Below are positions 23,099-53,483 of a DNA stretch of 55,430 nucleotides, piece after piece. Both the position numbers and the translations under genes were made by a program. The notes below the pieces were generated by a model. The model was given only the letters and a program-made list of their open reading frames with translations, was not told the origin of the DNA and ran no database searches. The number at the start of each line of letters is the position of its first letter. Within the stretch, counting starts at the first letter, position 1. This DNA is from a virus: positions 1 through 55,430 of IMG/VR virus record IMGVR_UViG_3300032050_005838. One strand, 5' to 3'.

Positions 23099-23315
23099 TT
23101 TGTTTTCCTATTGTTTCTGGTGCGTGATCTAACACATCGTTATATTCGTCACGATAAAAATATGCATCTTCATCGTTAATAGTAACTGTCAAGTCACTAT
23201 GTCGTAAATCATAATCAACAAAATTATGATTGTCATCGTACACACGAAATACAGTTTGTCCTGTAAATATCTGTATCAAGTGTCCAGTAACACCGTTGGC
23301 TGATTGTGTTTTCAA
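23085..23315 (-). CDS. small phage protein, unknown function
   Basis: 76 aa, beta-rich, acidic and Tyr-rich in the middle (TVFRVYDDNHNFVDYDL, DAYFYRDEYNDV). The start overlaps the ligase stop by 4 nt (ATGA). No membrane segment and no family recognised. Confidence 0.65.
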   Translation of the reverse strand: MKTQSANGVTGHLIQIFTGQTVFRVYDDNHNFVDYDLRHSDLTVTINDEDAYFYRDEYNDVLDHAPETIGKQNGKD

Positions 23316-37109: not shown

Positions 37110-38493
37110 GTTTCTTAAAGAATGCCACCCGGTGAGTTATTTCCAGGGAGAATTGTTTTTCTATATCAATGTCATTAGTCATGATATTGATCAATTCTTT
37201 GTCAGGGGCATCTAGTAGATTATACAGTCTTTCATTAAGTAAAGCAAATGATTGGTCAGTCTTTTTGTCAAAATAGGCATTATGGCTTAGAAATTTTAAC
37301 CATTGTTCATGACTTTCGGGCATGTTCTTTAATTCTTCAATTGTGGAATTTATAAAATTAAAAAGCACCCGGGTATGGTCAGGATATTTCTTAAAGATGC
37401 CATGCCCGACACAGATCTGTAAAAACTCAATCAACGCTGGTCGATATCGTATAGGCAAGGCTTCTACGTCCAGGTGGCGGGTCTGATTTGTAAGATTAAT
37501 AGGTTTTATAGGAAATGAATAATGCTGTTGATCAAACCAGGCTGACCAATAGGTCATAAATTCGTCAATGTACATGATGTTGTTGAGGCTGAACACTGGT
37601 GTGATCAAACAACGCCATCTAGGAGTATATGTTTTCTTTCCAGACACAATACTCAGAGTGGTTTGATGACTCATTAGTGTGGCTAAATTGTTTTCAATCT
37701 TTTCAAATTTAGCCGGCCACCGCAGATATTGATAATTGTCGCCCACTGAGTCAATGCTTAAATTGATATCTACATCTCTAAACTGTGACATCTTGCTCAT
37801 GAGATCGTAGCCTGGCCGTACTGACAGTGCAGTGGTCACACGCAGATGCACACGAGGTGCAATTCCTTGAGCAATCATCCAGTTCAAAAGTTTTTTCATG
37901 CCTGGCTGCACAAGACTTTCCCCACCAATGAAATGCACATAAAAATGCTCTACCTCGGGCAATTTTTCTAATATGGTTGTGGTAATCAACTTCCAGTGTT
38001 CAGGACTTGTACTAATATCTATTTCATACTGTTCGCTCACAGGAGTATTGGTTATTCTAGCCCAGGTCGAGCTTTCTGTTTTTGAACAACTCCTGCAGGC
38101 TAGATTACAAAAGTTACTGAACTTGACCCGCAGTTCAAACTCAGGAAGTGCTTGTTTTTCTACAAAACTCCTTAATCTATCTTCAATGTATCCCAAGAAA
38201 CCATTCACACGTTCACTAGCACCACTGTGGTCTTCTTCAGATTTACAGCGCCAGCATGCTTCAGGCCATTGTTCATTTAACTGTTGCTCTTTGATATCAG
38301 CAAATGGATCTGCTCCTGCACTGGGCACAAAAGTTCTGTCGTCAAGATTGCAACAACAGGTTTTGTACACGGGTTCTGAACTCAGCTCTGAATAACGTGT
38401 GTCTAGTGTGACATAGGGATATATGCACAATGTGGGATTTTGTTCAGCCCATAACAGTCGTTGGTCTACAGACTTTTTCAGTGCGTCGGTCAT
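37093..38493 (-). CDS. radical SAM protein (twitch/SPASM type)
   Basis: 466 aa from ATG 38493, which overlaps the IscA-like stop as ATGA; a longer start at 38520 looks unused. An extra Cys cluster CCC at about 46-48 and CWRC at about 80-83 precede the SAM-cluster motif FCNLACRSC (Cys129, 133 and 136). HFIGGESL is the SAM-binding GGE-type strand and VDINLSIDSVGDNY a core barrel strand. It relates in plan to the proteins at 49658 and 52515. Such enzymes modify peptides, nucleotides or sugars; the substrate is unknown. It needs a 4Fe-4S cluster, for which the neighbouring IscU and IscA are suited. Confidence 0.85.
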   Translation of the reverse strand: MTDALKKSVDQRLLWAEQNPTLCIYPYVTLDTRYSELSSEPVYKTCCCNLDDRTFVPSAGADPFADIKEQQLNEQWPEACWRCKSEEDHSGASERVNGFLGYIEDRLRSFVEKQALPEFELRVKFSNFCNLACRSCSKTESSTWARITNTPVSEQYEIDISTSPEHWKLITTTILEKLPEVEHFYVHFIGGESLVQPGMKKLLNWMIAQGIAPRVHLRVTTALSVRPGYDLMSKMSQFRDVDINLSIDSVGDNYQYLRWPAKFEKIENNLATLMSHQTTLSIVSGKKTYTPRWRCLITPVFSLNNIMYIDEFMTYWSAWFDQQHYSFPIKPINLTNQTRHLDVEALPIRYRPALIEFLQICVGHGIFKKYPDHTRVLFNFINSTIEELKNMPESHEQWLKFLSHNAYFDKKTDQSFALLNERLYNLLDAPDKELINIMTNDIDIEKQFSLEITHRVAFFKKLDVQS

Positions 38494-38810
38494 ACTCGAA
38501 AACTTTCTCCGCAACCGCAACGATCACGCTCATTGGGATTGCGGAATTCAAATCCTTCATTTAGGCCGTTGCGCACAAAGTCCACAGTTACGCCTTGCAA
38601 GTAGGCACAACTCTTGGGATCTACATAAATTTCACAGCCGTTACAGCTAAAGCATTGATCTTCAGTTTTGGGTGCATCAACATATTCCAACACATAGGCC
38701 AGGCCTGAACAGCCTGTGGTACGAACACCTAGTCTGATGCCTACACCATGCCCGCGACGTTGGAGTGTTTGTTTTATCTTTCTAGCCGCAATGTCAGTTA
38801 CTGATACCAT
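38490..38810 (-). CDS. iscA: A-type Fe-S carrier (IscA/HesB-like)
   Basis: 106 aa, the standard length. The three cluster-ligand Cys are in place: Cys34 in TTGCSGLAYVL and Cys98/Cys100 in RCGCGESF; VDPKSCAYLQG and VDFVRNGLNEGFEFRNPN match the family. A-type proteins pass Fe-S clusters from the scaffold to apo-enzymes. It is encoded between two radical SAM genes in an operon that also has IscU. Overlap with the upstream radical SAM gene is 13 nt. Confidence 0.93.
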   Translation of the reverse strand: MVSVTDIAARKIKQTLQRRGHGVGIRLGVRTTGCSGLAYVLEYVDAPKTEDQCFSCNGCEIYVDPKSCAYLQGVTVDFVRNGLNEGFEFRNPNERDRCGCGESFRV

Positions 38811-39802
38811 GATTTTTTAGTGCAATATGTGTTGCAAGCAGTTAGTTGTTTAGGGGTGTCAAATGTGTCAATTATCTGATTGAACCACACTACGCCTTTT
38901 TCCAATGTGTCTACAGTGGCTCCGTCCCTGAGCACATGAACATCTTCCACATATGTTGTGCCAGGCTTGCTGAAATTGCCAATGAAACAGCACGGATCTA
39001 TATTGCCGTCGGATGCAATATACATACTCACTGGTGACCAAATGTGTAGGGCCTTGCACTCAACTTCATCGTAGGGTGCCTGGGCCAGTTTACGAGGTCC
39101 GTGCAGATTGATCCATTCTTCTGTGATTTGATCTGGGAAAGTTTTACCTGATTCTTTTTTGAGTTCAAATATTTTTTGGCCGTGTTGATTGTATACTGGT
39201 CCCCAGTCTCGGCCATGATGTCTCAAATTGAATTTTTTAAATCCCAGTGCTTCACTGCGTTCACGTGCTTCGTTGATCTGATGACGATTGTGATCAAATT
39301 CAGTCATGCACCAATTGGCATGCCCACCGGCTGCAATAAAGATTTGAGCATTTTTGATCACTGTTTCAAACACTGTGTTTTGTCGGTAGATATGATGAGT
39401 GTCTTCAAGACCGTCAATGCAAAACTCCATAACCACTCCTGTGGCTGCCAAGGATTGCCAAAATTCACGACCTTGGGCGCCGCCATTGGTGGATGCAGAA
39501 AGTGTTAATCCAGGTTTTCCAGGTTTAAATTTTTGTCCGTGTTGTCTAAACCAAGCCAATATACTGGGTGTTTCAGGATTCATCACTAGGTCGCCAAGGT
39601 TTCCATTTATTAACACACGTTTCAGTTGTGCAACCACAGTCTCAGGCACAATTGTTTTGATTTTTTCCAAGGTCAAATTGGTTTCTTTATAACCAAAATT
39701 GTAGGGAAATCCATGATAGTTGCGCATGCACATGGGGCACCTTGCGTTACACAAGGAACTGATTTCTATTTGTAATTCTCGAATGTCTGAGATGTTAATC
39801 AT
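38798..39802 (-). CDS. radical SAM protein with C-terminal Cys cluster
   Basis: 334 aa. Motif EISSLCNARCPMC gives Cys18, 22 and 25. VLINGNLGD, TLSASTNGG and MEFCIDGLEDTHHIYRQN are barrel strands. C-terminal Cys in IDPCCFIGNF and LTACNTYC suggest an auxiliary cluster as in SPASM or twitch proteins. It is clearly paralogous to the protein at 51472-52512: both share CIDGLE-x-THH-x-YRQNTV, FIAAGG and EFDHN-x-H. Substrate unknown. It overlaps the SGNH gene by 4 nt. Confidence 0.87.
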   Translation of the reverse strand: MINISDIRELQIEISSLCNARCPMCMRNYHGFPYNFGYKETNLTLEKIKTIVPETVVAQLKRVLINGNLGDLVMNPETPSILAWFRQHGQKFKPGKPGLTLSASTNGGAQGREFWQSLAATGVVMEFCIDGLEDTHHIYRQNTVFETVIKNAQIFIAAGGHANWCMTEFDHNRHQINEARERSEALGFKKFNLRHHGRDWGPVYNQHGQKIFELKKESGKTFPDQITEEWINLHGPRKLAQAPYDEVECKALHIWSPVSMYIASDGNIDPCCFIGNFSKPGTTYVEDVHVLRDGATVDTLEKGVVWFNQIIDTFDTPKQLTACNTYCTKKSWYQ

Positions 39803-40608
39803 GATGTATTTAAGATATATTTGCTGGCTACCATTTCAGCAAACCGTCTGTTGGTCTCTGCATTGTAATGCCCGCCTGGTAACTCACCTCTTGCACTACT
39901 GGCATAGGTTACAATATTGTTAATGTGCAACCAATCAATGCCTGTGTCTTCCCAGGCTCCACGTATGTCAGGAAATTGGTTTAATAATTTGATACCACCA
40001 GCTGGGTCTAGAACAGAACTAACAAAGTTGTGGGTAGAAAACACATGTATGTTCTTGACTCCGTGACTGCGACATATGGCTTGTGAAATCATCACTGTGA
40101 CTAGAAATCTATAAAAATTAGATTCCCATCCTTCTAGCAGTTTTAAGTTAACAAAATAATCAGTTTCAGGTCCTAATCGAGGCACTGTGCCAGCATTTAC
40201 AAACCTTGGTAAAATTTTATCCTGATACTGATTATTGAACAATACTTCTCGATCAATAGAACTAAACTGCAATATCACAGTGTCTGGTTTAATCTTTATT
40301 AGATCTTGTGCCAGCTTGTAAGGCCAGTAACTGGGGCCTGACTTGGCCGCAGACTGATTAATTACTGTTTGTTGAGTTATTTCTGCCAACTGCCCTGGCC
40401 AACATAACTTTGCTTCCAGGTCATGAAGTACCTTGTCACCTAGTGTTCTATGAAGTTCTTGACTTTCTTTTATTGCAATATCACTACCGCACCAGTTGTG
40501 ATATTTGACTAGATTGGATGTGCGTTCTGTGTGGCCTGGCCAACTGGGGTACAAATAATCAGCTAGTTCACTGCCCGAACTAAAGCTGTCACCTAGCACA
40601 TAGATCAT
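39799..40608 (-). CDS. SGNH/GDSL-like hydrolase
   Basis: 269 aa. The nucleophile block is MIYVLGDSFSSGSEL (Ser8); a Gly-containing NQSAAKSGPSYW block follows, ILQFSSIDREVLF is block III with its usual Asn replaced, and the catalytic His lies in PGGHYNAETNRRFAE (His247). Family members are esterases or lipases, some acting on glycans. No signal peptide, so it acts in the cytoplasm. It lies between IscU and a radical SAM gene, with 4-nt overlaps on both sides, which implies a shared pathway with the radical SAM enzymes. Confidence 0.8.
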   Translation of the reverse strand: MIYVLGDSFSSGSELADYLYPSWPGHTERTSNLVKYHNWCGSDIAIKESQELHRTLGDKVLHDLEAKLCWPGQLAEITQQTVINQSAAKSGPSYWPYKLAQDLIKIKPDTVILQFSSIDREVLFNNQYQDKILPRFVNAGTVPRLGPETDYFVNLKLLEGWESNFYRFLVTVMISQAICRSHGVKNIHVFSTHNFVSSVLDPAGGIKLLNQFPDIRGAWEDTGIDWLHINNIVTYASSARGELPGGHYNAETNRRFAEMVASKYILNTS

Positions 40609-40982
40609 TGATGTCTTTTGCGATAGTCTTCTACTGCCGCTTTGATTGCATCTTCTGCAAGTATTGAACAGTGAATTTTAACAGGGGGGAGGGCAAGCTC
40701 ATCAGCAATCTCGCTATTTTTGATCGCTGCCGCTTCGTCAAGTGTGCGTCCTTTGACCCATTCAGTAACCAGCGAACTCGACGCAATCGCTGAGCCGCAA
40801 CCATATGTTTTAAATCTTGCATCTGTGATTACTCCATCTTTTACTTTTATTTGTAACTTCATCACATCACCGCAGGCAGGTGCTCCTACCATGCCTGTAC
40901 CTACATCTTCGTCGCCTTTTTCAAAGCTACCCACGTTGCGTGGATTCTCATAATGATCTACTACTTGATTGGAATATGCCAT
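40605..40982 (-). CDS. iscU: IscU Fe-S cluster scaffold
   Basis: 125 aa from ATG 40982, close to the E. coli length of 128; a longer in-frame start at 41090 lies inside the exported-protein gene and is rejected. The scaffold residues are complete: Cys37 and Asp39 in GAPACGDVMK, Cys62 in YGCGSAIASS, and His104/Cys105 in KIHCSILAEDA. LPPVK at 98-102, the HscA recognition motif, is intact, so host HscBA could act on it. Start follows the previous stop by 1 nt (TAATATG), so it is coupled. No iscS or hscA is in the window. Confidence 0.95.
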   Translation of the reverse strand: MAYSNQVVDHYENPRNVGSFEKGDEDVGTGMVGAPACGDVMKLQIKVKDGVITDARFKTYGCGSAIASSSLVTEWVKGRTLDEAAAIKNSEIADELALPPVKIHCSILAEDAIKAAVEDYRKRHQ

Positions 40983-40983
40983 A

Positions 40984-41295
40984 TTATTGTGTACAGGTTC
41001 TTTCGCGGTAGATTTTACCGTCGAGTGTTTGGATTTCTTTCCAAGGCGTGCAAGACTCTTGCGGCACGTAGACGGGTTGTTGTTGCACAATCACTGTTTC
41101 TGCTTGTGCAGGTCTATTGGCAATAACAGCACCTACTACCCCGCCAATGATTAACGGGGCGACCCAATTATTATGACCATAATGGCCGTAGTATCTGGCA
41201 TGTCCATACGGACCGTGGTGGCCATGTCGCCAATGTTGTGCTAGTGCAGGCACTGTGACCATTAACAATGCTAGTGAAATTAAGATCTTTTTCAT
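40984..41295 (-). CDS. exported His-rich protein coupled to iscU
   Basis: 103 aa. Signal peptide at 1-19 (MKKILISLALLMVTVPALA). Residues 20-45 hold ten His with Gly, Arg and Tyr, a composition able to bind metals; a glycine-rich hydrophobic segment follows (WVAPLIIGGVVGAVIA), then a QQQP linker and two Cys (ESCTPW and RTCTQ) likely to form a disulfide. It is the first gene of the operon behind the promoter at 41314-41342, with SD AAAGGAGAT. It may be a periplasmic metal binder or a glycine-zipper envelope protein; unknown. Confidence 0.8.
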   Translation of the reverse strand: MKKILISLALLMVTVPALAQHWRHGHHGPYGHARYYGHYGHNNWVAPLIIGGVVGAVIANRPAQAETVIVQQQPVYVPQESCTPWKEIQTLDGKIYRERTCTQ

Positions 41296-41362: not shown

Positions 41363-41722
41363 TTAAACGCCGCGGGATTTGTTCATTGCCGATTTGGCGG
41401 CATTGGCAACTATGTCTTGTGCTTTGTTCACAGGCATAGCAACCGGTTCGGCAGGTTCGCCTTCACCTTTGAATATGATTTCTTGTGCTTCTGGAGTCAT
41501 TGGTTCTAGTACCGAACTCAATGGAGGTTGTCCCACAATCTCTTCAATGTTGTCTTCGGTAACATTAATGCCCAGACTTTGTGCTAGGCTGATAAATGCA
41601 CCTCGAGAGATTTGTTTTTGTGCGCCTTCGTCGTCTGCACGTCCGGCAAGAAAGTTGACCAGCCCTAACAGTTCGTCGGGGCTGGGTGTTGTGGATTCTG
41701 TTATGAATTCACGGAATCGCAT
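41363..41722 (-). CDS. head-associated protein with T4-type capsid targeting sequence
   Basis: 119 aa. The start MRFREFITES resembles the T4 internal protein leader MKTYQEFIAE, and I7-T8-E9 is a (L/I)xE site for the gp21 prohead protease. The remainder (LLGLVNFLAGRADDEGAQKQ, ISRGAFISLAQSLGINVT) is a conserved T4-like phage protein. Probably packaged in or near the head; function otherwise unknown. It shares a base with the 294-aa gene. Low-complexity Glu/Pro region at about 88-100. Confidence 0.72.
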   Translation of the reverse strand: MRFREFITESTTPSPDELLGLVNFLAGRADDEGAQKQISRGAFISLAQSLGINVTEDNIEEIVGQPPLSSVLEPMTPEAQEIIFKGEGEPAEPVAMPVNKAQDIVANAAKSAMNKSRGV

Positions 41723-42606
41723 TATCTACGTGCTCGGCCCAGACCAGCACCGCCTGCGGCTGCTTCTGGTTCTGCAGGAACTTCAGGAGGCATTGCGCCG
41801 CCCATTTCTGGAGCAGGAGCGGCACCCATGTTGGCTTGTACATCAACCACACCAGGAGCAGTGGCCATGCCAGCGTCAGGAGCAGGTGCTTGACCTGTTA
41901 CCACGCCCAGGGCTTGATCCAAGGCAGCTTTGGCACCTTGTAAGTTTTGTACCAGGCCAGCAAGAGCGGCTGTGGCATCTGTGTTGAATTGTGTGGCTTG
42001 ATCAATGCCCACTTGGTTCTTGATCGAGTCAACTAGAGCTGGTAATTCTTTGAACTGTAATTCAGTTACATCTTCCAACATGCCTTGCATTTTGTCAACC
42101 ATGTCTTGTGCGGCCAACACAACTTGAGCTTGTTGTACTTCGCTTTCATTCAAGCGAGTCATCACACGACGCAGACGACTTTCGGCCTGCATCATGGCAG
42201 CACCAGCAACAAGTTTTTGCTCATCAGGGTTGAGTGTTTGACCACTTTGGCTCTTTTTCAAAGCAGCAGCCAGTTTGGGATCTTTAACTTGCACAGTGCT
42301 TGGTTGTGCTGGCTTGGCGCCTGGTGCGGCACCAGCAACTGGAGCAACAGGAATAGCCTCCTCAGCCATGCGTGTGGTCAGTGCCTGTTCCATCATTACC
42401 AGTTTAAGGTAACCTGGGTTTTGTTGGCTCTGATATCTAGCAGACCCTGAACGATGCTCACGTAGCAAACCTTGCACACGTTGCAACAGGTGCTGAGTTT
42501 GACGCGATGTTAAACGATCAAACTCAATGTTAGAACCAAAGTAACTTTCGAAAACTTTAGCGATTTGTTTTGTTGGCGACGGGGCGGCCAGTTCTTGCAG
42601 TTTCAT
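41722..42606 (-). CDS. putative prohead core or virion protein
   Basis: 294 aa, Ala/Gln-rich and helical. The start MKLQELAAPSPTKQIA is followed by SRQTQHLLQRVQGLL and QNPGYLKLVMMEQAL; a long helical part (EVQQAQVVLAAQDMVDKMQ, MLEDVTELQFKELPALVDSI) and a Pro/Ala/Met tail complete it. I recall the same plan in cyanophage genomes, in structural clusters. No enzymatic site. It overlaps the gene upstream by 50 nt. Confidence 0.72.
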   Translation of the reverse strand: MKLQELAAPSPTKQIAKVFESYFGSNIEFDRLTSRQTQHLLQRVQGLLREHRSGSARYQSQQNPGYLKLVMMEQALTTRMAEEAIPVAPVAGAAPGAKPAQPSTVQVKDPKLAAALKKSQSGQTLNPDEQKLVAGAAMMQAESRLRRVMTRLNESEVQQAQVVLAAQDMVDKMQGMLEDVTELQFKELPALVDSIKNQVGIDQATQFNTDATAALAGLVQNLQGAKAALDQALGVVTGQAPAPDAGMATAPGVVDVQANMGAAPAPEMGGAMPPEVPAEPEAAAGGAGLGRARR

Positions 42607-44242: not shown

Positions 44243-44250
44243 TTATTTAC
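44243..44250 (-). promoter_or_regulatory. possible late promoter for the 131-aa virion gene
   Basis: GTAAATAA on the minus strand, 41 nt before the start of the 131-aa gene; it overlaps the preceding stop codon, so it may be coincidental. A leader hairpin follows it. Confidence 0.4.
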
Positions 44251-44911
44251 CAAAGTGACTGAAATCTTGTCTGTTATGGTATAAATTGCCTACTTCTTCA
44301 TCACTGTCAATAAGTGTTTGTAGTGCTGTATTTAGTTGATTCTGATTGGCAAGAGAAGGGATCACTTGGAAGTTTGACGGCAGGACTCCGAGATCTTCAG
44401 ACACTAGTTCTAGATCAAATCTAGTGTTGATCGCTTGCAATCGTTGATTGGTAGTTAATATAGAGATTGCGGCGTTTTTTAGTTCCGCAATATTTATTGG
44501 TATTTCTCCTGTGAAGCAGTCTTCAGAAAACAGTGGATAACGATCGTCGGTGTACTTTTTAACAAAATGCCATTGTTGGGTTTTTACGGCGCAATAAAAA
44601 CTTGTGATCTGAGCAAAAACATTCCGACGATGTAGTCGTATCAGTGTACATTGATTCAATAGAGGTTGTAGGAATTGCTGAATTTCTGGTGTGTATTGGT
44701 GAGAACTGCACATGACCTTGGCAACAAAGTTGCCTGACGACCTATTAATAAAATTCACAAATGATATTGCATGCTCTACATATAAAAAGGCTTCGTCGAA
44801 ATTTGTTAGTCCTTTTTCTTGTGCAATCCAATCGCATAGTGCCGTAGATCGTGTTCTAAATGATGAAAAGACGATAATAGACTTATTGTCTGGCAAATCA
44901 ATATTGATCAT
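44243..44911 (-). CDS. sulfotransferase-like P-loop protein
   Basis: 222 aa. IIVFSSFRTRSTALCDWIA (12-30) matches the 5'-phosphosulfate-binding loop of Stf0-type sulfotransferases, and TLIRLHRRNVFAQITSFYCA (about 88-107) the 3'-phosphate-binding Arg...Ser segment. Sulfotransferases move sulfate from PAPS to sugars, lipids or proteins. The gene lies within the virion cluster, so virion glycan or host surface modification is possible. It overlaps the 629-aa gene by 4 nt. Confidence 0.68.
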   Translation of the reverse strand: MINIDLPDNKSIIVFSSFRTRSTALCDWIAQEKGLTNFDEAFLYVEHAISFVNFINRSSGNFVAKVMCSSHQYTPEIQQFLQPLLNQCTLIRLHRRNVFAQITSFYCAVKTQQWHFVKKYTDDRYPLFSEDCFTGEIPINIAELKNAAISILTTNQRLQAINTRFDLELVSEDLGVLPSNFQVIPSLANQNQLNTALQTLIDSDEEVGNLYHNRQDFSHFGK

Positions 44912-46797
44912 TGAACAGGATTATTACGTTGTCGGTTTTGAGCGGCAAAAGCATTGGGGTCAAAGCGATTCACAGCTTTGGCATAGCCTGCAGGAGTGGC
45001 CATGACCCAGCCTTCTTGTCCAGGATGTTCTAGATCTGCTTGCTTTAGGATGTCCATCTTTAGATCATGCAATAGCAAGAACGCTGTAAATGCCGCTGCC
45101 AATGCAGGGGTATTGCTAGTGGGACTTTCCAGGTACTCCACAATGTTACGGAACTTGCTGGGAGTTACCTTGCTTTGTAACCATTCACCAAACTCGGGCA
45201 ACAGTGTTGCAGGGTTCAGCGGAGCACCAACCTTGGTATTGATATAGTCCACACACAGTTTGGCAAGGTCTGTGATCTTGTGTGCTCGTAGTTCTGCAGG
45301 ATTAAACAAGGTGGCAATGTCAGCACCATCTGTACGAATTAGTTGTTTGAGTTGTTTGACTTTGGCAGGCTCAGCAGCCAGTGCCCGAGGCGTTGCAGGA
45401 CGCTCTAGCATCAAGCCTGGAACTTCATTAAACTTTACACCGCTCAAGGGCTGACGTGCATCGCCCACATCAGAGTACATTGAGTGTACAGCAATGCCAA
45501 TATCACTGTTGGCTATGCGTTGGCCCAAGTTACTTCGAGCTGGAATTTTGTACTCAACAGTGTTGGGACGGAAAACATAGTTGCCTGCAATCTCAGGAGG
45601 TGTTGACATGTACAGCAAGTCGCCTTTGACATAGCCTCGGAAGTTAGCGGGCAAACTGGCTTCCAGCACAGGGAATAGAGTTGCGTACAAGTTGATCAGT
45701 TCGTCACGGTTACCAGATCGTGTGCGTTGAATCTGTGCCATCATTTCAGGACTGGTAGCAAGACCGTCGTAGCCTTTGGCTTCAAAGCCTGAGCCATCTG
45801 TCAACACAAACTCGCCTGTAGCAGGTTTACGGCCCCAGATCACAGCAGGCTTGCCGTCCCACTTGGCAGTGGTTGTTCGGGGATTTTCAGTGGCGTGTTG
45901 TACAATTTCCAGTGCATCTTGAATGCCTTGTGTGCCACGACGGAACACAAGATCTTCCAAGTGTTCAATGCCCTTGGCTCTACCGCCTACACCGGGCTCT
46001 TCTGCTTCTACCAAGGCAACATAGCCTTTATTAACAATACGATCACGCAAGCGACCCAGAAATCCCACATCATCTTCGGACACTGACAGTTGTGGTTCTT
46101 TTAATCCTTCACGTTGAAGATATTCACGAAAGTCTTTTAGCTTGGCATCTTTATTGGGATCATTACTCAATGCGGCGTAGATGCTTTCCACATTCTTTAG
46201 GTTTTCTTTTGTGAATGCAGGACCCAATAATACTCGGGCTACCTGGCTGGGATCCATTCCGCCTTGTACTAGCTCTTCTGTTGACCGACTGAACATGCCA
46301 TTGGCGCCTACTTTGAAACCCAAGGCCTTGGCTATGCTGGACATTAACACATTACGGTTCATACCCTTGTATGCAGATCCTTCTGCGCCACCATAATAGA
46401 ATGTGCCCCAGTCCAAGTTAGGAAAAAACATAAAATCAGTTTGCACATAGCCTTTGTTGGGGTCTCCGGCAATGGGAGTACGGAAATGAACTTCGCCCTT
46501 TTTAACCACCCATTCACGTGGGTCCAATCCTTGACTGGTCACAATCTTTTGTAATGCTGAGGCCAATTGATCTTTATCAATTTCATTTAGGTCCACGCCA
46601 AGATCTAAATCGCCAGATGTGGGCTTGCGGCCAGTGGATCCCAGCCAGCGTTCCGTAGGGAATTCAATTCCCAGAATGTTTTCGATATAAGCAATGGTAG
46701 CAGGCACATCTGCTTGATTGATACGTTGTGTGAGTGGCTGGCCTTGCTTGTCCTTGAACACATTGCCGCCTTCTAATAGTTTAGTTAGATATTTCAT
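44908..46797 (-). CDS. nucleotidyltransferase fused to ligase-like KWDG domain (DUF6267-like)
   Basis: 629 aa. N-terminal MKYLTKLLEGG carries a possible (L/I)xE head-protease site (L7-L8-E9). Residues about 30-170 contain GSTGRKPTSGDLDLGVD (Gly-Ser, then Asp63/Asp65) and a third Asp121 in QTDFMF, the polymerase-beta nucleotidyltransferase pattern. From about 276, GIEHLEDLVFRRG and then AKWDGKPAVIWGR (Lys312) correspond to the conserved phage family with a K-x-DG motif like ATP/RNA ligases; YVKGDLLYM and VEYKIP follow. Function is uncharacterised. Possibly an injected nucleic-acid-modifying enzyme (inference). Confidence 0.75.
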   Translation of the reverse strand: MKYLTKLLEGGNVFKDKQGQPLTQRINQADVPATIAYIENILGIEFPTERWLGSTGRKPTSGDLDLGVDLNEIDKDQLASALQKIVTSQGLDPREWVVKKGEVHFRTPIAGDPNKGYVQTDFMFFPNLDWGTFYYGGAEGSAYKGMNRNVLMSSIAKALGFKVGANGMFSRSTEELVQGGMDPSQVARVLLGPAFTKENLKNVESIYAALSNDPNKDAKLKDFREYLQREGLKEPQLSVSEDDVGFLGRLRDRIVNKGYVALVEAEEPGVGGRAKGIEHLEDLVFRRGTQGIQDALEIVQHATENPRTTTAKWDGKPAVIWGRKPATGEFVLTDGSGFEAKGYDGLATSPEMMAQIQRTRSGNRDELINLYATLFPVLEASLPANFRGYVKGDLLYMSTPPEIAGNYVFRPNTVEYKIPARSNLGQRIANSDIGIAVHSMYSDVGDARQPLSGVKFNEVPGLMLERPATPRALAAEPAKVKQLKQLIRTDGADIATLFNPAELRAHKITDLAKLCVDYINTKVGAPLNPATLLPEFGEWLQSKVTPSKFRNIVEYLESPTSNTPALAAAFTAFLLLHDLKMDILKQADLEHPGQEGWVMATPAGYAKAVNRFDPNAFAAQNRQRNNPVQ

Positions 46798-46798
46798 G

Positions 46799-47485
46799 TT
46801 AAGGCTGCGGGTTTTTCAGTAGTTTTTGTTGTAATGTCAATGCCATTCTGTGAGAAGGGTCATTGGCGTTGTAGGGTTTGCCATTATACAACGGATTGTT
46901 GCTAGGATCAAATGTCACTGTGGCAACTCGATTGTTGGCAGTATTGTCAGCCCCTTTACCGAAGTTTTTAATGCTTTTGGCACGTTGAATACTGGTGGCC
47001 AAGGGCAGCCAGACATTGGCTCCAGGATTGGGTTTCTGTGTGTCTGCAATGGCAGCCGTGATTTGTGGTTTTAGTTCAGTTTTTAACAAGTTGGCCTGCC
47101 CTGATCCGTCATCTGGAAGTTCATCAATATCAACTCCAGCCAGTTGATTTACAAACTGATATAATTCTTTTTCCAAGGCGGCTTTATCAATTTGCGCTGC
47201 TGATGTAACAGGATTTTTTGTCTCAGGGTCGTCAGATTTCAACATCAGTTGTTGCACATTTTGTGCCCAGCGTTTTTGCATTTCTTTGGCCAATGGTGCC
47301 AGTAATGTCTTGTTCACTTCGCCAGCGGCACCTTGACGTAAATTACTATCAACTTTTGGTCCAAGACGGGTTTGGTCCAAGGAATCTAATGGATTGGCCA
47401 CCCCAGCTGATTTGTACAGCATGTTGGTAAGTCCAGACACCACATCTTCTTTTATTGGCTTGCGTGTTATTTCATGAATCTGCAT
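46799..47485 (-). CDS. head-associated conserved phage protein
   Basis: 228 aa from ATG 47485 with AGGAAAA upstream; an earlier ATG at 47521 lies inside the previous gene. Start MQIHEITRKPIKED resembles the many T4-like virion proteins with a short leader; I11-K12-E13 fits a prohead protease site. The rest is helical with Gln/Asn-rich turns (KEMQKRWAQNVQQLM, NVWLPLATSIQRAKS). It lies 1 nt before the 629-aa gene, so the two are coupled. No enzymatic motif. Confidence 0.7.
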   Translation of the reverse strand: MQIHEITRKPIKEDVVSGLTNMLYKSAGVANPLDSLDQTRLGPKVDSNLRQGAAGEVNKTLLAPLAKEMQKRWAQNVQQLMLKSDDPETKNPVTSAAQIDKAALEKELYQFVNQLAGVDIDELPDDGSGQANLLKTELKPQITAAIADTQKPNPGANVWLPLATSIQRAKSIKNFGKGADNTANNRVATVTFDPSNNPLYNGKPYNANDPSHRMALTLQQKLLKNPQP

Positions 47486-47720
47486 TGGTTTTCCTAACGG
47501 ATCTGGAAAACTTTCCAGCATCCTTTGTTCTTATGGCATTGAGCAATTTTCTTGTGAGATTTTCTGCTTGTTCAGCACCAAACTCATGTTCAATTTGTTC
47601 CACTAGTCTAATGGCGCTGGCAATGATATTGTCAGCTCGACTTTCAATTATCAGGCGACGATCACGCTCAACATACATTGAGTCCAATTCTTCTAACAAA
47701 CTGCGTGTCTTTTTTTGCAT
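47472..47720 (-). CDS. small helical phage protein
   Basis: 82 aa, strongly helical: RSLLEELDSMYVERDRRL then RADNIIASAIRLVEQIEHEF. It is conserved in T4-like phages of this group next to the head-associated genes. It is preceded by a possible late promoter (TAAATA at 47741-47746), back to back with the plus-strand one. The end overlaps the next gene by 14 nt. Confidence 0.72.
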   Translation of the reverse strand: MQKKTRSLLEELDSMYVERDRRLIIESRADNIIASAIRLVEQIEHEFGAEQAENLTRKLLNAIRTKDAGKFSRSVRKTNADS

Positions 47721-47802: not shown

Positions 47803-49671
47803 ATGACCAGTCAAATCAATCCATCAAATATCGATGCTACATATCCTGTAGCAGGGCAACCCAATAACACACAGGGTTTCCGCGATAATTTCACTGCCAC
47901 ACAGACCAATTTCAACTATGCCGCAACTGAAATAACAGATTTACAAAACAAAGCAGTACTAAAGGCAGCACTCACAGGCACCACGTTGGACAACAACATG
48001 AATGATGCACTGCTTTATGCTGCCAAGATACAAGATTTTAGCGCAACTGCGGTGAATCTTACAACCACTTCGGGACCAGTCACAGTGGATTATACTACCG
48101 GACATTATCAAAGTCTCTCTCCGGCCACTGGCAGTGTTACTTTGGGCTTTACAAAATGGCCTGCGGCAAACAATTATGGCTTTTTAAGACTGCGAATTTA
48201 CATTACCAACACCGCCTACACAGTGACTTTGCCTGCGGCTGCCACTCAAGGCATTGCTGGTATTCAAGGACTGTCAGGCAGCACAATCACCTTTGGTGCC
48301 ACCGGCTATTACGAATTTGGTTTTAGCACAGTAGATGGTGGTACCACAATCACAGTGTTTGATTTGAATCGTCCATTGAGCTATTATACTAATCCTGTAA
48401 CAATCAACAGCAACGTAGCCAGTACCAGTACCACTTCTGGGGCATTGACTGTGGCAGGTGGGGTTGGAATCAATGGTAATCTTTATGTGGCAGGCAACGT
48501 TGTTGGAAACTTTGTAGCTACAACTCAAACATTTGCCGGTAATTTAACCGGCGGAAACTTGTTGACAGCCGGAATAACAAGCGCCACTGGTAATGTCACT
48601 GGTGGTAATTTACGTACTGCTGGGCAAGTAAGTGCCACAGGCAATGTAACTGGTAACTTTTTTATTGGCAACGGATCAGGACTGACTGGTATTGTTGTGT
48701 CAGGCGGTACATCTATTGTCAACGGAAATAGTAATGTTGGAGTAATTGCCAATAGTAATGTCACTATCAGCGTTGGCGGAACATCAAATGTTGCAGTATG
48801 GGCCAACACTGGTGGGATCGTAACTGGTTTACTCAGTGCAACAGGTAATATCACTGGTGGTAATTTACGTACCGCTGGACAGATATCAGCAGGCGGTAAT
48901 ATCACTGGCGGTAACATTATTGCTGGGGTAGGTGTAGGAGTAGCTGGTGATGTGGCAGTAGGTGGTGTAATATTTGCCGCTGGCAACATCACTGGATCTT
49001 ATTTACTTGGCAACGGATCTTTTTTAACAGGATTGTCTAGTTCAACAAGGATCGCATCAGGTACCACAGAAATAGCCATTGACGCACCAAGTGGTAATAT
49101 TCAAACAACAATTGGTGGCACTGCAAACGTAGTGGTGTTCACCACAAACGGTCTAGGTGTAGCAGGGTTTGTAGTGGCCACTGGCAACATCACTGGTAGC
49201 AATGTTACCGCTAGTGGTAATGCTATTGTTAGTGGATTTGTTAGTGCTGTAGGCAACGTCTCTGGCGGTAACATCCGAACTGCTGGATTAATCACTGCCA
49301 CTGGTAATATTACCAGTGGTAATATTGGTGTAACAGGAAATGTCAGTTTAACTGGTAATGTTATTTCTGGAAATTTGACTACTAGTTCTCAAGTGGTAGC
49401 ACTTGGTAATGTAACTGGCGGAAATATCAGAACCGACGGTCAGGTGCTGGCGCTAAGTGCCACATCTCTGCCAGCAGGTGGTGTAGCTGGCGCTGGATAT
49501 GTGTTTTCATCTACTGCAAACTTTGGCGTATTTTTTGGATCTGGTGTGCCAACACTGAGTGCTGCCAAAGGATCTTTGTATCTTAGAAGCGATGGCACTA
49601 CCACCAATGATCGTATGTATGTAAATACCAATGGCGTCACGACCTGGACTGCTGTAATTACTGCGGCTTAA
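47803..49671 (+). CDS. repeat-rich tail fibre protein
   Basis: 622 aa. The start MTSQINPSNIDATYPVAGQPNN with NTQGFRDNF is the attachment-type N-terminus found in T4-like cyanophage fibres. Residues about 30-190 form a beta-rich domain. From about 240 to 550 there are roughly 20-residue repeats of the type SATGNVTGGNLRTAGQ, interrupted by IGNGSGLTGI units, typical of long trimeric fibres. The C-terminus holds a small receptor-binding-like domain (GSGVPTLSAAKGSLYLRSDG) common in phage fibres. It overlaps the convergent radical SAM gene by 14 nt. Confidence 0.85.
   Translation: MTSQINPSNIDATYPVAGQPNNTQGFRDNFTATQTNFNYAATEITDLQNKAVLKAALTGTTLDNNMNDALLYAAKIQDFSATAVNLTTTSGPVTVDYTTGHYQSLSPATGSVTLGFTKWPAANNYGFLRLRIYITNTAYTVTLPAAATQGIAGIQGLSGSTITFGATGYYEFGFSTVDGGTTITVFDLNRPLSYYTNPVTINSNVASTSTTSGALTVAGGVGINGNLYVAGNVVGNFVATTQTFAGNLTGGNLLTAGITSATGNVTGGNLRTAGQVSATGNVTGNFFIGNGSGLTGIVVSGGTSIVNGNSNVGVIANSNVTISVGGTSNVAVWANTGGIVTGLLSATGNITGGNLRTAGQISAGGNITGGNIIAGVGVGVAGDVAVGGVIFAAGNITGSYLLGNGSFLTGLSSSTRIASGTTEIAIDAPSGNIQTTIGGTANVVVFTTNGLGVAGFVVATGNITGSNVTASGNAIVSGFVSAVGNVSGGNIRTAGLITATGNITSGNIGVTGNVSLTGNVISGNLTTSSQVVALGNVTGGNIRTDGQVLALSATSLPAGGVAGAGYVFSSTANFGVFFGSGVPTLSAAKGSLYLRSDGTTTNDRMYVNTNGVTTWTAVITAA
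48530..49460 (+). repeat. tandem repeats in the tail fibre gene
   Basis: About 15 imperfect units of roughly 60 bp, each with GGTAATNTNACTGGTGGTAA-like DNA, encode GN-x-TGGN-x-x-TAG-x-x-SAT. The DNA is similar enough for slippage or recombination to alter fibre length. Confidence 0.75.
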
Positions 49672-50842
49672 CCAATTTCCACAATTCAGGAAACGTCTCG
49701 GCTAGATCTTGTTTGCGCAACAGGTCTAGCTTTTTTGTTGTTGACCAGAACTTTGCCCACAATTCAGTTTGATTATCTAACGGCATGTCCATAAAGTCTA
49801 GTATGCTGGCAACTTGATGACTGGCTCCTGCTAGATGTGTTCTAACTTGTGCTTTGACTTGATCGGGCAACACACGCACATTGATATGTTGTGGATGATG
49901 CACCATGTTAAAGAAGTAGCCTATGCCACGCTGTTTAAAATACTGCTCAATCTCTTCAAGATACAAGATATTGTAGGCACATACAGTGACACAAACGCAC
50001 ATGCTGATATTAGAGTGTTGGCGTACTAGTTCTTGATAACGATCCAAGTTCTTTTCTACTGTGCTCCAAGTTTCCCCATATCGTATGTAATCAAAATGTG
50101 GACCAATACCATCTATGCTGATGTCTAATGCAACATGTTTGAATTGTGTTAATGTATCAATGTATCGTTGATTCCAAATTGTACCATTGGTATTGATGTG
50201 CAGACTTTGATCTTGAGCTAGATTTTTATCCACAGCTTGTTGTAGGATATTAAACACATTGCTCAACAGCATGGGCTCAGCACCATAGATGTCATAGTAC
50301 CGGACATCAGTTAACCATTCTTCCAACTCATTCCACAGGCGAGTGTTTTCAGGTTCATAACTGCTTTTGATCCTGCCCCAACTGGCTAGATACTTCTTAT
50401 AGTCAGGTTCTTGCTTGTGTGCTTCTAGTTCCCAATAGTCGCGATACCATTTGCTTGACACTTCGGGCCAACATGTTCTGCAGGCTAAGTTACAGGTGTT
50501 ACCAGGTTTGAGATCAACCAGCTGTGGACGATGTGCGTTTTGTGGTAGGTCCTTGAACTGCTGATTGGCCACAAGTCTGCGGCTGCTACGACCTGCATTT
50601 TCTTCTGCCCAACAAGCACTACAGTTAGGGTGCTGAATGCCTACGTCAAGGTCTGCTTGTATCTGTTGTCTAGTAGGGCTAGTCCATGCATCCTGCAAGG
50701 TATTGACATCAAGGTACAAGTCTTGTTGATTGTTGTCCTGCAGGTATGTTTGGCTGTGACAACACAACAGGCATCTGCCCGAATTGTGTAATGCAATGCC
50801 TGAATCTGCCCAGGCGCAATATAATTTTGAATCTTGATTCAT
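49658..50842 (-). CDS. radical SAM protein (twitch/SPASM type)
   Basis: 394 aa. N-terminal Cys cluster (LYCAW, GRCLLCCHS, NCSACWAEE) before the SAM-cluster motif NTCNLACRTCWPEVSSKW (Cys117, 121 and 124); YDIYGAEPML is a GGE-like strand with Gly-Ala-Glu, SLHINTNGT and LDISIDGIGPHFDYIRYG are barrel strands. It shares plan with 37093-38493 and 52515-53483. The Cys-rich start suggests that an extra cluster or peptide-binding knot precedes the barrel. Substrate unknown. Its ATG is 9 bp from the divergent oxygenase start at 50852. Confidence 0.86.
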   Translation of the reverse strand: MNQDSKLYCAWADSGIALHNSGRCLLCCHSQTYLQDNNQQDLYLDVNTLQDAWTSPTRQQIQADLDVGIQHPNCSACWAEENAGRSSRRLVANQQFKDLPQNAHRPQLVDLKPGNTCNLACRTCWPEVSSKWYRDYWELEAHKQEPDYKKYLASWGRIKSSYEPENTRLWNELEEWLTDVRYYDIYGAEPMLLSNVFNILQQAVDKNLAQDQSLHINTNGTIWNQRYIDTLTQFKHVALDISIDGIGPHFDYIRYGETWSTVEKNLDRYQELVRQHSNISMCVCVTVCAYNILYLEEIEQYFKQRGIGYFFNMVHHPQHINVRVLPDQVKAQVRTHLAGASHQVASILDFMDMPLDNQTELWAKFWSTTKKLDLLRKQDLAETFPELWKLVKPQ

Positions 50843-50851
50843 GTTGTAAAT

Positions 50852-51517
50852 ATGTATATGGAAACTACCCTCAACACTAAATTCATTGGCATTCGACGTT
50901 TTGTAAGCGAACTAAAATTAGAGTTACCATTTGAGCGAGCGCAGATTATCCAAGAACTTGATGACGAAGCTTGGGTGCCGCACGGAGAAATTTCTCCAGT
51001 AGGTCACAATCCGTGGCCTGGCATGCGTTTTAAATGTTTGCGGCCACAGTGGAAACACCAAGCACTCACTGGTGTTAGTAGATACTTTGGCAGTGTTGAA
51101 TTCAAGCGTCAAGCTATTGATTGGATGTATCAAGAGTATCATGGTATTGATGTTACTTGGGGCATGAGTGCTGACGAAATGTGCCGTCGATCAAGAACAC
51201 ACATTGAGTTTACCAAAGACATGCCTGGTTTTGTCAACGACATACACACAGATTATCGTCAGCTGATTGCTACAGGAATGATTTACTTTAGTGATCACGA
51301 CACACCAGATTTAAGTTCTTATTTTTATACTGATCAACATCGCAGTAATCCCACACGCATGACCACTGCATTTGGCGATGGGTGGTGGCACATGAACAAC
51401 CATGACACCTGGCACGAGGGATGGAATCGCACTGATCAAGTGAGATATAGCGGCTTGTTAGGTTTAACTATTCACACATCTGATTTACCCAAAGACGATC
51501 CACAGTTCCCACACTGA
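50852..51517 (+). CDS. 2OG-Fe(II) oxygenase family protein
   Basis: 221 aa from ATG 50852; a TTG at 50834 would add six residues, and ATG 50858 is also possible. The triad is readable: H132-T-D134 in NDIHTDYRQLIATG and His188 in HDTWHEGWN, with Arg198 in QVRYSGLLGL as 2-oxoglutarate ligand. It converges on the radical SAM gene at 51472 with a 46-nt overlap. The only plus-strand gene in a minus-strand radical SAM block. Substrate unknown; a combined modification pathway is possible. Confidence 0.72.
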   Translation: MYMETTLNTKFIGIRRFVSELKLELPFERAQIIQELDDEAWVPHGEISPVGHNPWPGMRFKCLRPQWKHQALTGVSRYFGSVEFKRQAIDWMYQEYHGIDVTWGMSADEMCRRSRTHIEFTKDMPGFVNDIHTDYRQLIATGMIYFSDHDTPDLSSYFYTDQHRSNPTRMTTAFGDGWWHMNNHDTWHEGWNRTDQVRYSGLLGLTIHTSDLPKDDPQFPH

Positions 51518-52512
51518 CGATTACATATAACCAATCGTCCTTGATCAAACTCAGGGATGCTCCAGGTCTTTTCAATTTCCTCAAACCAGGTCATGCATTC
51601 TTCTAAGCTGTGCTTGATAGCATTGTTATTGCCAATCATATGACTAAACTGTTTGTTTACAGCTTGGTGCCAACCTCCTCGACCAAAGGTCTTGGGGGAG
51701 AATCCGAGATAGCAACACGGAAACACATCGCCAGTGCTGGAAACGTACACTGATTTTCGTTTTTGAACTTCGCAATCAATGGAACGAGGAGTTTCGTTGC
51801 CAACAATATCTTCTAACAGTATTTCACCATTGATTCTAACATCACGCATTTTTTCAAAATCTATCTCGCCAAACTCTTTCAACGGATCACCGATGATATG
51901 AGTAAGTTTTCCATCTTTATCAAACACTGGACTGTTAATTCGGTCTCCTCTAGTTATTGCAAATTTCGCAAATCCCAACTGTTGACTTAGTTGCTGTGCT
52001 TCTGCTTGCTGATGTTTATTATGGTCAAACTCAATCATACGCCACACCGCACGTCCTCCTGCGGCAATAAATGTTCGGGCGTTTTGTATTACAGTAGAGT
52101 ACACAGTATTCTGTCGATACAAATGGTGTGTTTCTTCTAGTCCATCAATGCAAAAATATACTTCAGTGTTTAGTCTAGCAAGATCTTGCCAGAATTTTTT
52201 GTTTCTTGCACCACCGTTGGTGCTGATCATAACATGAATCTTTGGATTGTGAAGTTTAAAATATTCAATTATGTCAACAGTTTCGGGATTCATTACAGCA
52301 TCGCCAAAGTTACCATTGATGTACAGTTCGTCTAACTGTTGTATGAAGTCAGGTTGAAAGATGCATTGGGCATCCTCCAGCGTTAGATCGCGTTCAACGT
52401 AGCCGTTGTTGTGAGGATACCCAAAGAAACTTCTAGGGCACAATGGACAATTGGCATTGCACCTGCTAGAAATTTCCAAATGCACATGACGTATTTGATC
52501 AAACTTATACAT
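51472..52512 (-). CDS. radical SAM protein, paralogue of 38798
   Basis: 346 aa. EISSRCNANCPLCPRSFFG (Cys18, 22 and 25), LYINGNFGD, MISTNGGARN and YFCIDGLEETHHLYRQN match the 38798-39802 protein segment by segment. C-terminal Cys in FPCCYLGF and ICNRQCGNCG suggest an auxiliary Fe-S cluster. The paralogy suggests duplication and divergence of substrate. It lies 2 nt after the 322-aa radical SAM gene. Confidence 0.87.
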   Translation of the reverse strand: MYKFDQIRHVHLEISSRCNANCPLCPRSFFGYPHNNGYVERDLTLEDAQCIFQPDFIQQLDELYINGNFGDAVMNPETVDIIEYFKLHNPKIHVMISTNGGARNKKFWQDLARLNTEVYFCIDGLEETHHLYRQNTVYSTVIQNARTFIAAGGRAVWRMIEFDHNKHQQAEAQQLSQQLGFAKFAITRGDRINSPVFDKDGKLTHIIGDPLKEFGEIDFEKMRDVRINGEILLEDIVGNETPRSIDCEVQKRKSVYVSSTGDVFPCCYLGFSPKTFGRGGWHQAVNKQFSHMIGNNNAIKHSLEECMTWFEEIEKTWSIPEFDQGRLVICNRQCGNCGSSLGKSDV

Positions 52513-52514
52513 AA

Positions 52515-53483
52515 TTATTCAACTTCCAGCTCTGGAAACGTAGTACGCCAGTTGGTGCCTCGACGAGTATCACACTCATCTAAGAATTGTAATGCAGGTT
52601 TTCTAGACCGTGTCAAAGCAAATCTACCATGCGCCAACTGTTGTCGATGCTCTATTATATCTGTAAATCTTGATACACAGAAATTTTCTTGTAACCATTG
52701 ATTTAGATTATCAAGATTGTGTTGATTTAATATACTTACTGTAGTGTTTACAGAAAACATGCAATTATTCGGAGCATAGTCTATGTACCACTGCAGATTA
52801 CTTGCAACTTTGGACCATTTGGCTGGATAACGTTGATATTCAAATCTTGCGCCAATGTCATCGATACTAAAATCTAGTTGTACTAACTTGTACTGACTCC
52901 ATAAGTCTATCAGTTCTTGGCTAGGCAGCACTGTACCATTGGTGTTGTAACTAATGTGTATGAGATTTTTATTGGGTAGTGCATGTAAAAATTTCACATG
53001 TTCTTTACTGAGTAAAGGTTCGCCACCATTGAAATGAACGTATCTTAAATGACTTGTATCTAGTGATGTCCAGAAATTATTAACAATAGTTTTTTTAGAT
53101 TCAATGGGATAATTTAATTCTTGTTTCCATACACTACTAAATTCTGGACCGCATATTGCACATGCCAGATTACACAAGTTACCAGTCCAATAATCTAATC
53201 GCACTAGTTCTACATCAGTATTGTACATGTCATTGTCACGATACCAACTGTTACTTCCTTGTCTGCGACTAATCAAACCTTGATTTTCGTTTTGTTTGCA
53301 ATTATTACAGGCCGTTGGCCAAACTCCCTGGCTCCATGAATTTCTAACAGTTTGCAAGTATTTATTATTGCAAAAATCAATTTTTTCAGCATTTAGCGGA
53401 GTGGACAAACAACACGGTCCTAATTTTAAACCAGTAGACGAAACAACATTTAAATTTTTAAACGCATCTATGCAAATATTCAT
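52515..53483 (-). CDS. radical SAM protein (twitch/SPASM type)
   Basis: 322 aa. An N-terminal Cys set (GPCCLSTPL, ACNNCKQNE) precedes GNLCNLACAICGPEFSSVW (Cys104, 108 and 111); VHFNGGEPLLS is a canonical GGE strand; LDFSIDDIGARFEYQRY continues the barrel. Shortest of the three twitch-type proteins. It overlaps the helicase stop by 4 nt, so it is expressed with replication genes. The upstream Cys may bind an auxiliary cluster. Substrate unknown. Confidence 0.87.
   Translation of the reverse strand: MNICIDAFKNLNVVSSTGLKLGPCCLSTPLNAEKIDFCNNKYLQTVRNSWSQGVWPTACNNCKQNENQGLISRRQGSNSWYRDNDMYNTDVELVRLDYWTGNLCNLACAICGPEFSSVWKQELNYPIESKKTIVNNFWTSLDTSHLRYVHFNGGEPLLSKEHVKFLHALPNKNLIHISYNTNGTVLPSQELIDLWSQYKLVQLDFSIDDIGARFEYQRYPAKWSKVASNLQWYIDYAPNNCMFSVNTTVSILNQHNLDNLNQWLQENFCVSRFTDIIEHRQQLAHGRFALTRSRKPALQFLDECDTRRGTNWRTTFPELEVE

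What the first reader, a model, noticed from the sequence alone, without database searches (positions are those of the whole stretch)
44908..46797. Fusion of a pol-beta-type nucleotidyltransferase with a ligase-like KWDG domain
GSTGRKPTSGDLDLGVD plus a third Asp in QTDFMF, and later AKWDGKPAVIWGR with downstream YVKGDLLY and VEYKIP, put two nucleotide-transfer chemistries in one chain. The KWDG part resembles a widespread uncharacterised T4-like family (DUF6267-type). Possible roles are RNA end repair, tRNA editing against host defence, or protein AMPylation.
Basis: partly seen in the sequence, partly recalled or inferred. Interest (0 to 1): 0.64.

Follow-up and report, generated by a model that had tools for sequence, protein, structure and literature searches.

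The report
Phage head precursor of two nucleotidyltransferases
A freshwater relative of phage T4 makes one long protein that joins a DNA-polymerase-beta-like enzyme to a ligase-like enzyme (Pfam family DUF6267), and its sequence suggests it is packed into the phage head, cut into two pieces by the phage's own head protease, and injected into the host with the DNA.

Summary
The 629-aa ORF at 44908-46797 (-) carries an intact pol-beta triad (D63, D65, D121) and, at 277-612, DUF6267 (PF19782, E=2.5e-28) with ligase-like motifs I, IV and V and a GD variant of motif III. At least 80 viral contigs encode relatives, nearly all the whole fusion.

The N-terminal half folds like family X polymerases (Foldseek prob ~1.00). 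The ligase fold of DUF6267 rests mainly on motifs; structure comparison is only suggestive. The two activities also occur as nearby separate genes in Atu_ph07, Phosso and PA5oct.

Many stand-alone DUF6267 proteins begin with a T4-type capsid-targeting leader, usually 10 residues: F/L at 4, mostly F/Y at 7, L/I at 8, E at 10. Stand-alone homologues of the polymerase half carry variable leaders ending E|GGNVF. The fusion keeps both predicted cut sites: LLE9|GGNVF, and LVE264|A in a disordered linker where stand-alone DUF6267 loses its leader. Near-complete relatives encode the T4-type prohead protease.

Best reading: a head-packaged, protease-processed precursor of two injected nucleotidyltransferases, probably repairing nucleic-acid ends early in infection. 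Packaging and processing are predicted, not shown. The substrate is open.

The parts
44908..46797 (-). fusion ORF, 629 aa: pol-beta (family X-like) domain + linker + DUF6267 (ligase-like) domain
46771..46797 (-). predicted capsid-targeting leader MKYLTKLLE (residues 1-9), cut after E9 before GGNVF
   Evidence: [LI]xE|GG in 98% of 48 fusions with variable residues before it; stand-alone homologues MLVREVILE|GGNVF, MRFAELLE|GGNVF; Atu_ph07, Phosso and PA5oct homologues start at MGG/MSG
46108..46770 (-). pol-beta-superfamily nucleotidyltransferase domain (residues 10-230), family X polymerase-like fold
   Evidence: AlphaFold2 pLDDT mostly 75-94; Foldseek to pol beta, TdT, lambda, mu with prob ~1.00; homologues
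46603..46611 (-). D63-x-D65 metal-binding pair of the GS-x8-D-x-D motif
   Evidence: invariant 50/50
46435..46437 (-). D121, third catalytic Asp (QTDFMF)
   Evidence: invariant 50/50
45970..46089 (-). disordered linker, residues 237-276
   Evidence: pLDDT < 50
46003..46014 (-). predicted internal prohead-protease site LVE264|A265
   Evidence: [LI]xE in 48/48 fusions, some with a second LYE|A; same place as the leader cut of stand-alone DUF6267
44962..45969 (-). DUF6267 domain (residues 277-612)
   Evidence: PF19782 E=2.5e-28, 1.5e-30
45853..45864 (-). ligase motif I, K312-W-D-G
   Evidence: K, D, G 108/108
45610..45624 (-). motif III-like G392-D393-L-L-Y (D in place of the usual E)
   Evidence: G, D 108/108
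45550..45567 (-). PNTVEY, family signature after motif III; PN[TSV][IV]xY is also present in the ligase-like neighbours of Atu_ph07, Phosso and PA5oct
45004..45015 (-). motif IV-like E595-G-W-V
   Evidence: EG[FYW]V...K-x-V-x-R pattern in 98/108 unaligned sequences
44965..44979 (-). motif V-like K607-A-V-N-R
47472..47720 (-). upstream neighbour, virion structural protein family; a homologue also lies just before the stand-alone polymerase-like gene in L367
   Evidence: phrog_11854 E=2.4e-16; L367 6.6e-18
46799..47485 (-). upstream neighbour, 228 aa, unknown; N-terminus MQIHEITRKPIKED has short leader-like features
   Evidence: no family
41363..41722 (-). nearby small protein with a T4-type leader MRFREFITE|S
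41722..42606 (-). nearby virion structural protein
   Evidence: phrog_14154 E=2.4e-12

Best explanation
The ORF encodes a precursor of an internal head protein of a T4-type jumbo phage. The leader MKYLTKLLE directs it into the prohead core. The gp21-type prohead protease cuts after E9 and after E264, giving a pol-beta/family-X-like nucleotidyltransferase (about residues 10-264) and a DUF6267 ligase-like covalent nucleotidyltransferase (265-629). Both are packaged and ejected into the host with the genome. There they act on nucleic-acid ends before phage genes are expressed: the first adds nucleotides to a 3' end or fills a gap, the second forms an enzyme-NMP on K312 and seals the strand. Shown here: domain content, conserved active-site motifs, the polymerase-like predicted fold, leaders on stand-alone relatives of both halves, conservation of both predicted cut sites, and the protease gene in relatives. 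Inferred: packaging and cutting of this protein, enzymatic activity, and the substrate (DNA of the incoming genome, or damaged host or phage RNA).
For: Domains and motifs. Polymerase-like fold: (pol beta 1rpl E 4e-3; TdT, lambda, mu; prob ~1.00). Ligase-like second half: motifs I, III (variant), IV, V in order; similarity to PA5oct EST35_0228 (E 2.5e-5) and, weakly, to an Atu_ph07 'RNA ligase' model; best solved-structure matches are ligases. The pairing recurs unfused: in Atu_ph07 and Phosso the polymerase-like gene overlaps a ligase-like gene, and in PA5oct they lie three genes apart. Leader: stand-alone DUF6267 has [LI]xE just before the domain in 79/80 and 62/62 loci of two groups. Among those with a 10-residue leader, position 4 is F or L in all 116, and position 7 is F/Y in 57/59 and 39/57; T4 work places targeting mainly at residues 4 and 7 and processing at 8 and 10 (PMC9026906). 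Stand-alone polymerase-like proteins have variable leaders ending E|GGNVF. Site conservation in the fusion: 98% and 100%. Protease PF03420: two large relatives, one with the identical fusion, gp23 close by, and five phages carrying the separate genes. Virion evidence for relatives: the PA5oct record marks the polymerase-like homologue 'structural protein, ESI-MS/MS'; the HIGH-type nucleotidyltransferase next to DUF6267, mostly leader-bearing, was found in virions of several cyanophages (PMC3037559, PMC9146016, PMC10665884).
Against: No virion proteomics for this phage. In S-SZBM1, DUF6267 itself (_141) is not named in the virion table although its neighbours _139, _140 and _136 are, and S-WAM1-type cyanophage DUF6267 has no leader. 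Leaders of the fusion family are short (often 5-9 residues) and this one lacks the aromatic at position 7; L/I-x-E is a weak motif, and two other [LI]xE sites inside folded parts are equally conserved. Motif III is GD, not GE; there is no C-terminal OB domain; the PDB fold match for DUF6267 is not significant. The phage has its own DNA ligase (23312-24685), so a second DNA ligase would need a reason.
Confidence: 0.55

Rival explanations
1. A cytoplasmic, unpackaged bifunctional RNA-repair enzyme, the fused counterpart of the RlaP nucleotidyltransferase plus RNA ligase pair that jumbo phages are thought to use to restore tRNAs cut by host defence.
For: RlaP is described as working beside RNA ligases in jumbo phages (PMC7824862). 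The ligase-like partner in Atu_ph07 and Phosso is nearest to PF09414 RNA_ligase, below the curated cut-off.
Against: RlaP HMM does not match, and Atu_ph07 encodes a separate RlaP elsewhere. Leader and protease-site evidence points to packaging. No tRNA gene in the window.
Confidence: 0.15
2. A packaged effector, like T4 Alt, whose nucleotidyltransferase domain or domains modify host proteins (NMPylation) to redirect host machinery.
For: Pol-beta nucleotidyltransferases, kinases and GNATs are recurrent domains, predicted to modify proteins, in injected phage proteins (PMC5512222). The 320-kb relative has leader-bearing proteins that weakly resemble a GNAT and a kinase.
Against: Fold is nearest to family X polymerases rather than to NMPylating pol-beta proteins; repeated pairing with a ligase-like partner points to nucleic acid.
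Confidence: 0.17
3. A structural or core protein of the head in which the nucleotidyltransferase folds are kept for architecture or DNA binding and are catalytically silent.
For: Neighbouring genes are virion structural families; motif III and the missing OB domain depart from active DNA ligases.
Against: D63, D65, D121, K312, D314, G315 and the EG...K pair are conserved across very diverged sequences, which is not expected of a dead fold.
Confidence: 0.08

Closest known systems
T4 internal proteins and Alt (capsid-targeting sequence cut by gp21)
   Same: short N-terminal leader ending L/I-x-E; gp21-type protease and T4-type gp23 in close relatives
   Different: two enzyme domains in one precursor with a second predicted cut between them; the enzymes are nucleotidyltransferases, not an ADP-ribosyltransferase
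Pfam DUF6267 (PF19782) / phrog_455
   Same: the second half is a clear member
   Different: fused to a polymerase-like domain; relatives seen here are stand-alone or, in some cyanophages, joined or next to a HIGH-type cytidylyltransferase-like protein
RlaP (PF10127) with RNA ligases
   Same: a pol-beta nucleotidyltransferase paired with a ligase-type enzyme in large phages
   Different: different sequence family (no HMM match); predicted packaging
Family X DNA polymerases with repair ligases (e.g. PolX and ligase of African swine fever virus)
   Same: polymerase-like catalytic fold plus a ligase-superfamily partner
   Different: no sign of an 8-kDa domain (ASFV PolX lacks it too, PMC5330486 abstract); no significant sequence similarity to solved family X enzymes; activity untested
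Polyvalent proteins (PMC5512222)
   Same: multidomain proteins predicted to be injected with the DNA, some with pol-beta domains
   Different: those combine up to 15 domains and some carry their own peptidase; here the cutting is predicted to be by the prohead protease

Membership tests
DUF6267 (PF19782) | Pfam HMM above gathering score | tested here: met
   100 bits vs 27
Ligase/capping covalent nucleotidyltransferase superfamily | motif I KxDG | tested here: met
   K312-W-D-G; K, D, G 108/108
Ligase/capping covalent nucleotidyltransferase superfamily | motif III with Glu | tested here: not met
   GD393 in 108/108; a conservative change, so membership is claimed as 'ligase-like', not as an established ligase
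Ligase/capping covalent nucleotidyltransferase superfamily | motif IV (EGxV) and motif V lysine, in order | tested here: met
   98/108 sequences
Ligase/capping covalent nucleotidyltransferase superfamily | fold match to solved members | tested here: inconclusive
   best matches are ligases but E >= 0.015; C-terminal part of the model is poor, probably because motif IV/V was misaligned in A4
Ligase/capping covalent nucleotidyltransferase superfamily | covalent lysyl-NMP intermediate | not testable with these tools
   needs a bench assay
DNA ligase (classical) | C-terminal OB domain after motif V | tested here: not met
   protein ends 18 residues after motif V
Pol-beta nucleotidyltransferase superfamily | GS...DxD plus third Asp, pol-beta fold | tested here: met
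Family X DNA polymerase | 8-kDa (helix-hairpin-helix) domain and sequence similarity | tested here: not met
   only about 50 residues precede the GS motif and no sequence match was found; catalytic-fold resemblance only
RlaP | PF10127 match | tested here: not met
   no match at E<1 or in four related contigs
T4-type internal head protein | leader ending L/I-x-E | tested here: met
   98% of 48 fusions
T4-type internal head protein | leader positions 4 and 7 as in T4 IPIII (seen here as F/L at 4 and F/Y at 7) | tested here: inconclusive
   clear in stand-alone DUF6267; position 7 is not aromatic in the fusion of the window
T4-type internal head protein | gp21-type protease in the genome | tested here: met
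   in two large relatives, one with the identical protein; not seen in the 55-kb window, which is a fragment
T4-type internal head protein | present and cut in virions | not testable with these tools
   needs virion mass spectrometry

The most novel reading that the evidence does not exclude
DUF6267, a very common unknown family of aquatic T4-like phages, is a virion-carried ligase-type enzyme, and in this lineage it is made as a polyprotein with a family-X-like polymerase that the head protease splits into a packaged repair pair delivered with the genome.
Probability: 0.4. Interest if true: 0.85.

Novelty: new variant of a known kind. Interest (0 to 1): 0.68.

Why it matters
DUF6267 has no assigned function and no paper in the library held here mentions it, although over 400 phage records and very many environmental contigs carry it. 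If the reading is right, T4-like phages of seas and lakes inject a ligase-type enzyme, and at least one lineage a polymerase-like partner too, before any phage gene is read. That would give a direct test of how incoming genomes or damaged RNA are repaired at the start of infection, and a case of the head protease maturing a two-enzyme precursor.

Tried and rejected
RlaP membership: rejected by HMM. Known defence proteins: no PADLOC match for the ORF. NCBIfam: none for the ORF. Solved-structure sequence searches: nothing credible. Second DUF6267 or a leader-bearing cytidylyltransferase partner in the 320-kb relative: no second DUF6267 found by sequence search; the HIGH-type protein examined there does not begin with the leader. 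Profile comparison of DUF6267 with the Atu_ph07/Phosso/PA5oct ligase-like proteins: E 0.0037 but probability only 9%, so that homology rests on structure similarity and motifs. Leader enrichment across the whole 320-kb relative is modest (7 vs 2.2 expected, p 0.008). PA5oct EST35_0229 as a syntenic marker (an idea in my notes): only a weak match to DLP6_65 and none to syn9 gp182, so dropped. Second AlphaFold job did not sharpen the ligase match, probably because the C-terminal motifs were misaligned. DUF6267 in the Methylophilaceae MAG that holds L367: not found.

Full report
What is there. The ORF at 44908-46797 (-) is intact and 629 aa long. Residues 277-612 match Pfam DUF6267. The first 230 residues match no library family but hold a conserved GS-x8-D-x-D and a third Asp. 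The best 80 relatives in IMG/VR nearly all hold the whole fusion. The window is a 55-kb virus record; a 320-kb contig carries the identical protein and a 331-kb contig a 95% identical one.

Fold of the two halves. AlphaFold2 gives a confident first domain, a disordered linker at 237-276 and a moderately confident second domain. Foldseek places the first domain with family X polymerases (pol beta, TdT, lambda, mu; probability about 1.00, E 0.004 and up). The second domain's best solved-structure matches are ligases, but not at significant E-values. Its motifs support the ligase superfamily: KWDG, GD in place of GE, EG[FYW]V and K-x-V-x-R in order. A predicted-structure match to PA5oct EST35_0228 (E 2.5e-5), whose sequence has EKIDG, YEIEV, VEGYV and VKIVDK, adds support. 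The misalignment of motif IV/V in alignment A4 is a known weakness of the second model.

The pair exists unfused. Homologues of the first domain are separate genes in Atu_ph07, Phosso and PA5oct. In the first two the gene overlaps a ligase-like gene; in PA5oct the ligase-like gene is three genes upstream. Fourteen further viral loci, and a contig in a Methylophilaceae MAG, carry the first domain alone; in the MAG contig it lies behind the same structural-protein family as in the window (phrog_11854).

Leaders and cut sites. T4 gp21 cuts after L/I-x-E, and the leader of T4 IPIII acts mainly through residues 4 and 7 (targeting) and 8 and 10 (processing) (PMC9026906). Stand-alone DUF6267 proteins of two groups show this pattern: [LI]xE just before the domain in 79/80 Melnitz-type and 62/62 DLP6-type loci. 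In the 10-residue leaders position 4 is F/L in 59/59 and F in 57/57, and position 7 is F/Y in 57/59 and 39/57. Positions 8 and 10 were part of the search pattern, so only positions 4 and 7 and the length are independent; the sequences are also related to each other. S-WAM1-type cyanophage DUF6267 lacks a leader. Stand-alone polymerase-like proteins have variable N-termini that all end E|GGNVF, while Atu_ph07, Phosso and PA5oct homologues start at MGG or MSG. In the fusion both sites are kept: [LI]xE|GG in 98% and LVE or ILE|A in 100% of 48 sequences. The internal site lies in the disordered linker and at the position of the lost DUF6267 leader; it keeps the processing residues but not the targeting ones, which fits an internal site. 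Other [LI]xE sites in folded parts are also conserved, so conservation alone is not proof.

Protease and virion evidence. PF03420 prohead protease is present in the two large relatives, close to gp23 in one of them, and in Atu_ph07, Phosso, PA5oct, DLP6 and Melnitz. It was not seen in the window itself, which is a fragment. Several proteins of the 320-kb relative, mostly without detectable similarity beyond the leader, share MRA[QR]EFI[TD]E N-termini. PA5oct's polymerase-like homologue is annotated as found by mass spectrometry. The HIGH-type nucleotidyltransferase beside DUF6267, which mostly bears a leader (117 of 134), has been found in several cyanophage virions, though the authors of one paper warn of carry-over, and DUF6267 itself is not named in the S-SZBM1 table.

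Function. A family-X-like nucleotidyltransferase plus a ligase-type enzyme delivered together most simply suggests filling and sealing of ends, on incoming DNA or on damaged RNA. The phage has its own DNA ligase, which argues for a special substrate or for timing before gene expression. Protein modification remains possible. None of these activities was tested.

Noticed in passing
related contig G001 (L182:1774-2412 -, L181:3752-4360 -): Proteins with MRAQEFI[TD]E leaders that weakly resemble a phage protein kinase (phrog_15752, E 7e-4) and a GNAT acetyltransferase (E 0.009, below cut-off): further candidates for injected enzymes.
   Followed up: partly
L367:7482-8930, also L373, L375, L376, L378, L384, L385: A second, different pol-beta-like protein of about 480-490 aa (weak DNA_pol_B_palm match in L367) lies close to the stand-alone polymerase-like gene.
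   Followed up: partly
cyanophage loci, e.g. L085:7173-8228, L189:5174-6247: The HIGH-type cytidylyltransferase/NMNAT-like protein next to DUF6267 mostly begins with a T4-type leader (117 of 134 with L/I-x-E in the first 16 residues), e.g. MRFRQFIIE|A.
   Followed up: partly
window 37093-39802 and 49658-53483: Several radical SAM proteins (phrog_14086 and phrog_21308 matches for three of them), with ORFs at 38490-38810 and 40605-41090 that read like Fe-S assembly proteins IscA and IscU (from sequence only, not searched).
   Followed up: no
window 6568-7569 and 12702-13940: Phosphate-transporter subunit (phrog_5385) and UDP-glucose dehydrogenase (phrog_9148) genes in the phage.
   Followed up: no
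window 44243-44911: Downstream neighbour, 222 aa, with only weak matches, one of them to a sulphotransferase (E 0.025).
   Followed up: no
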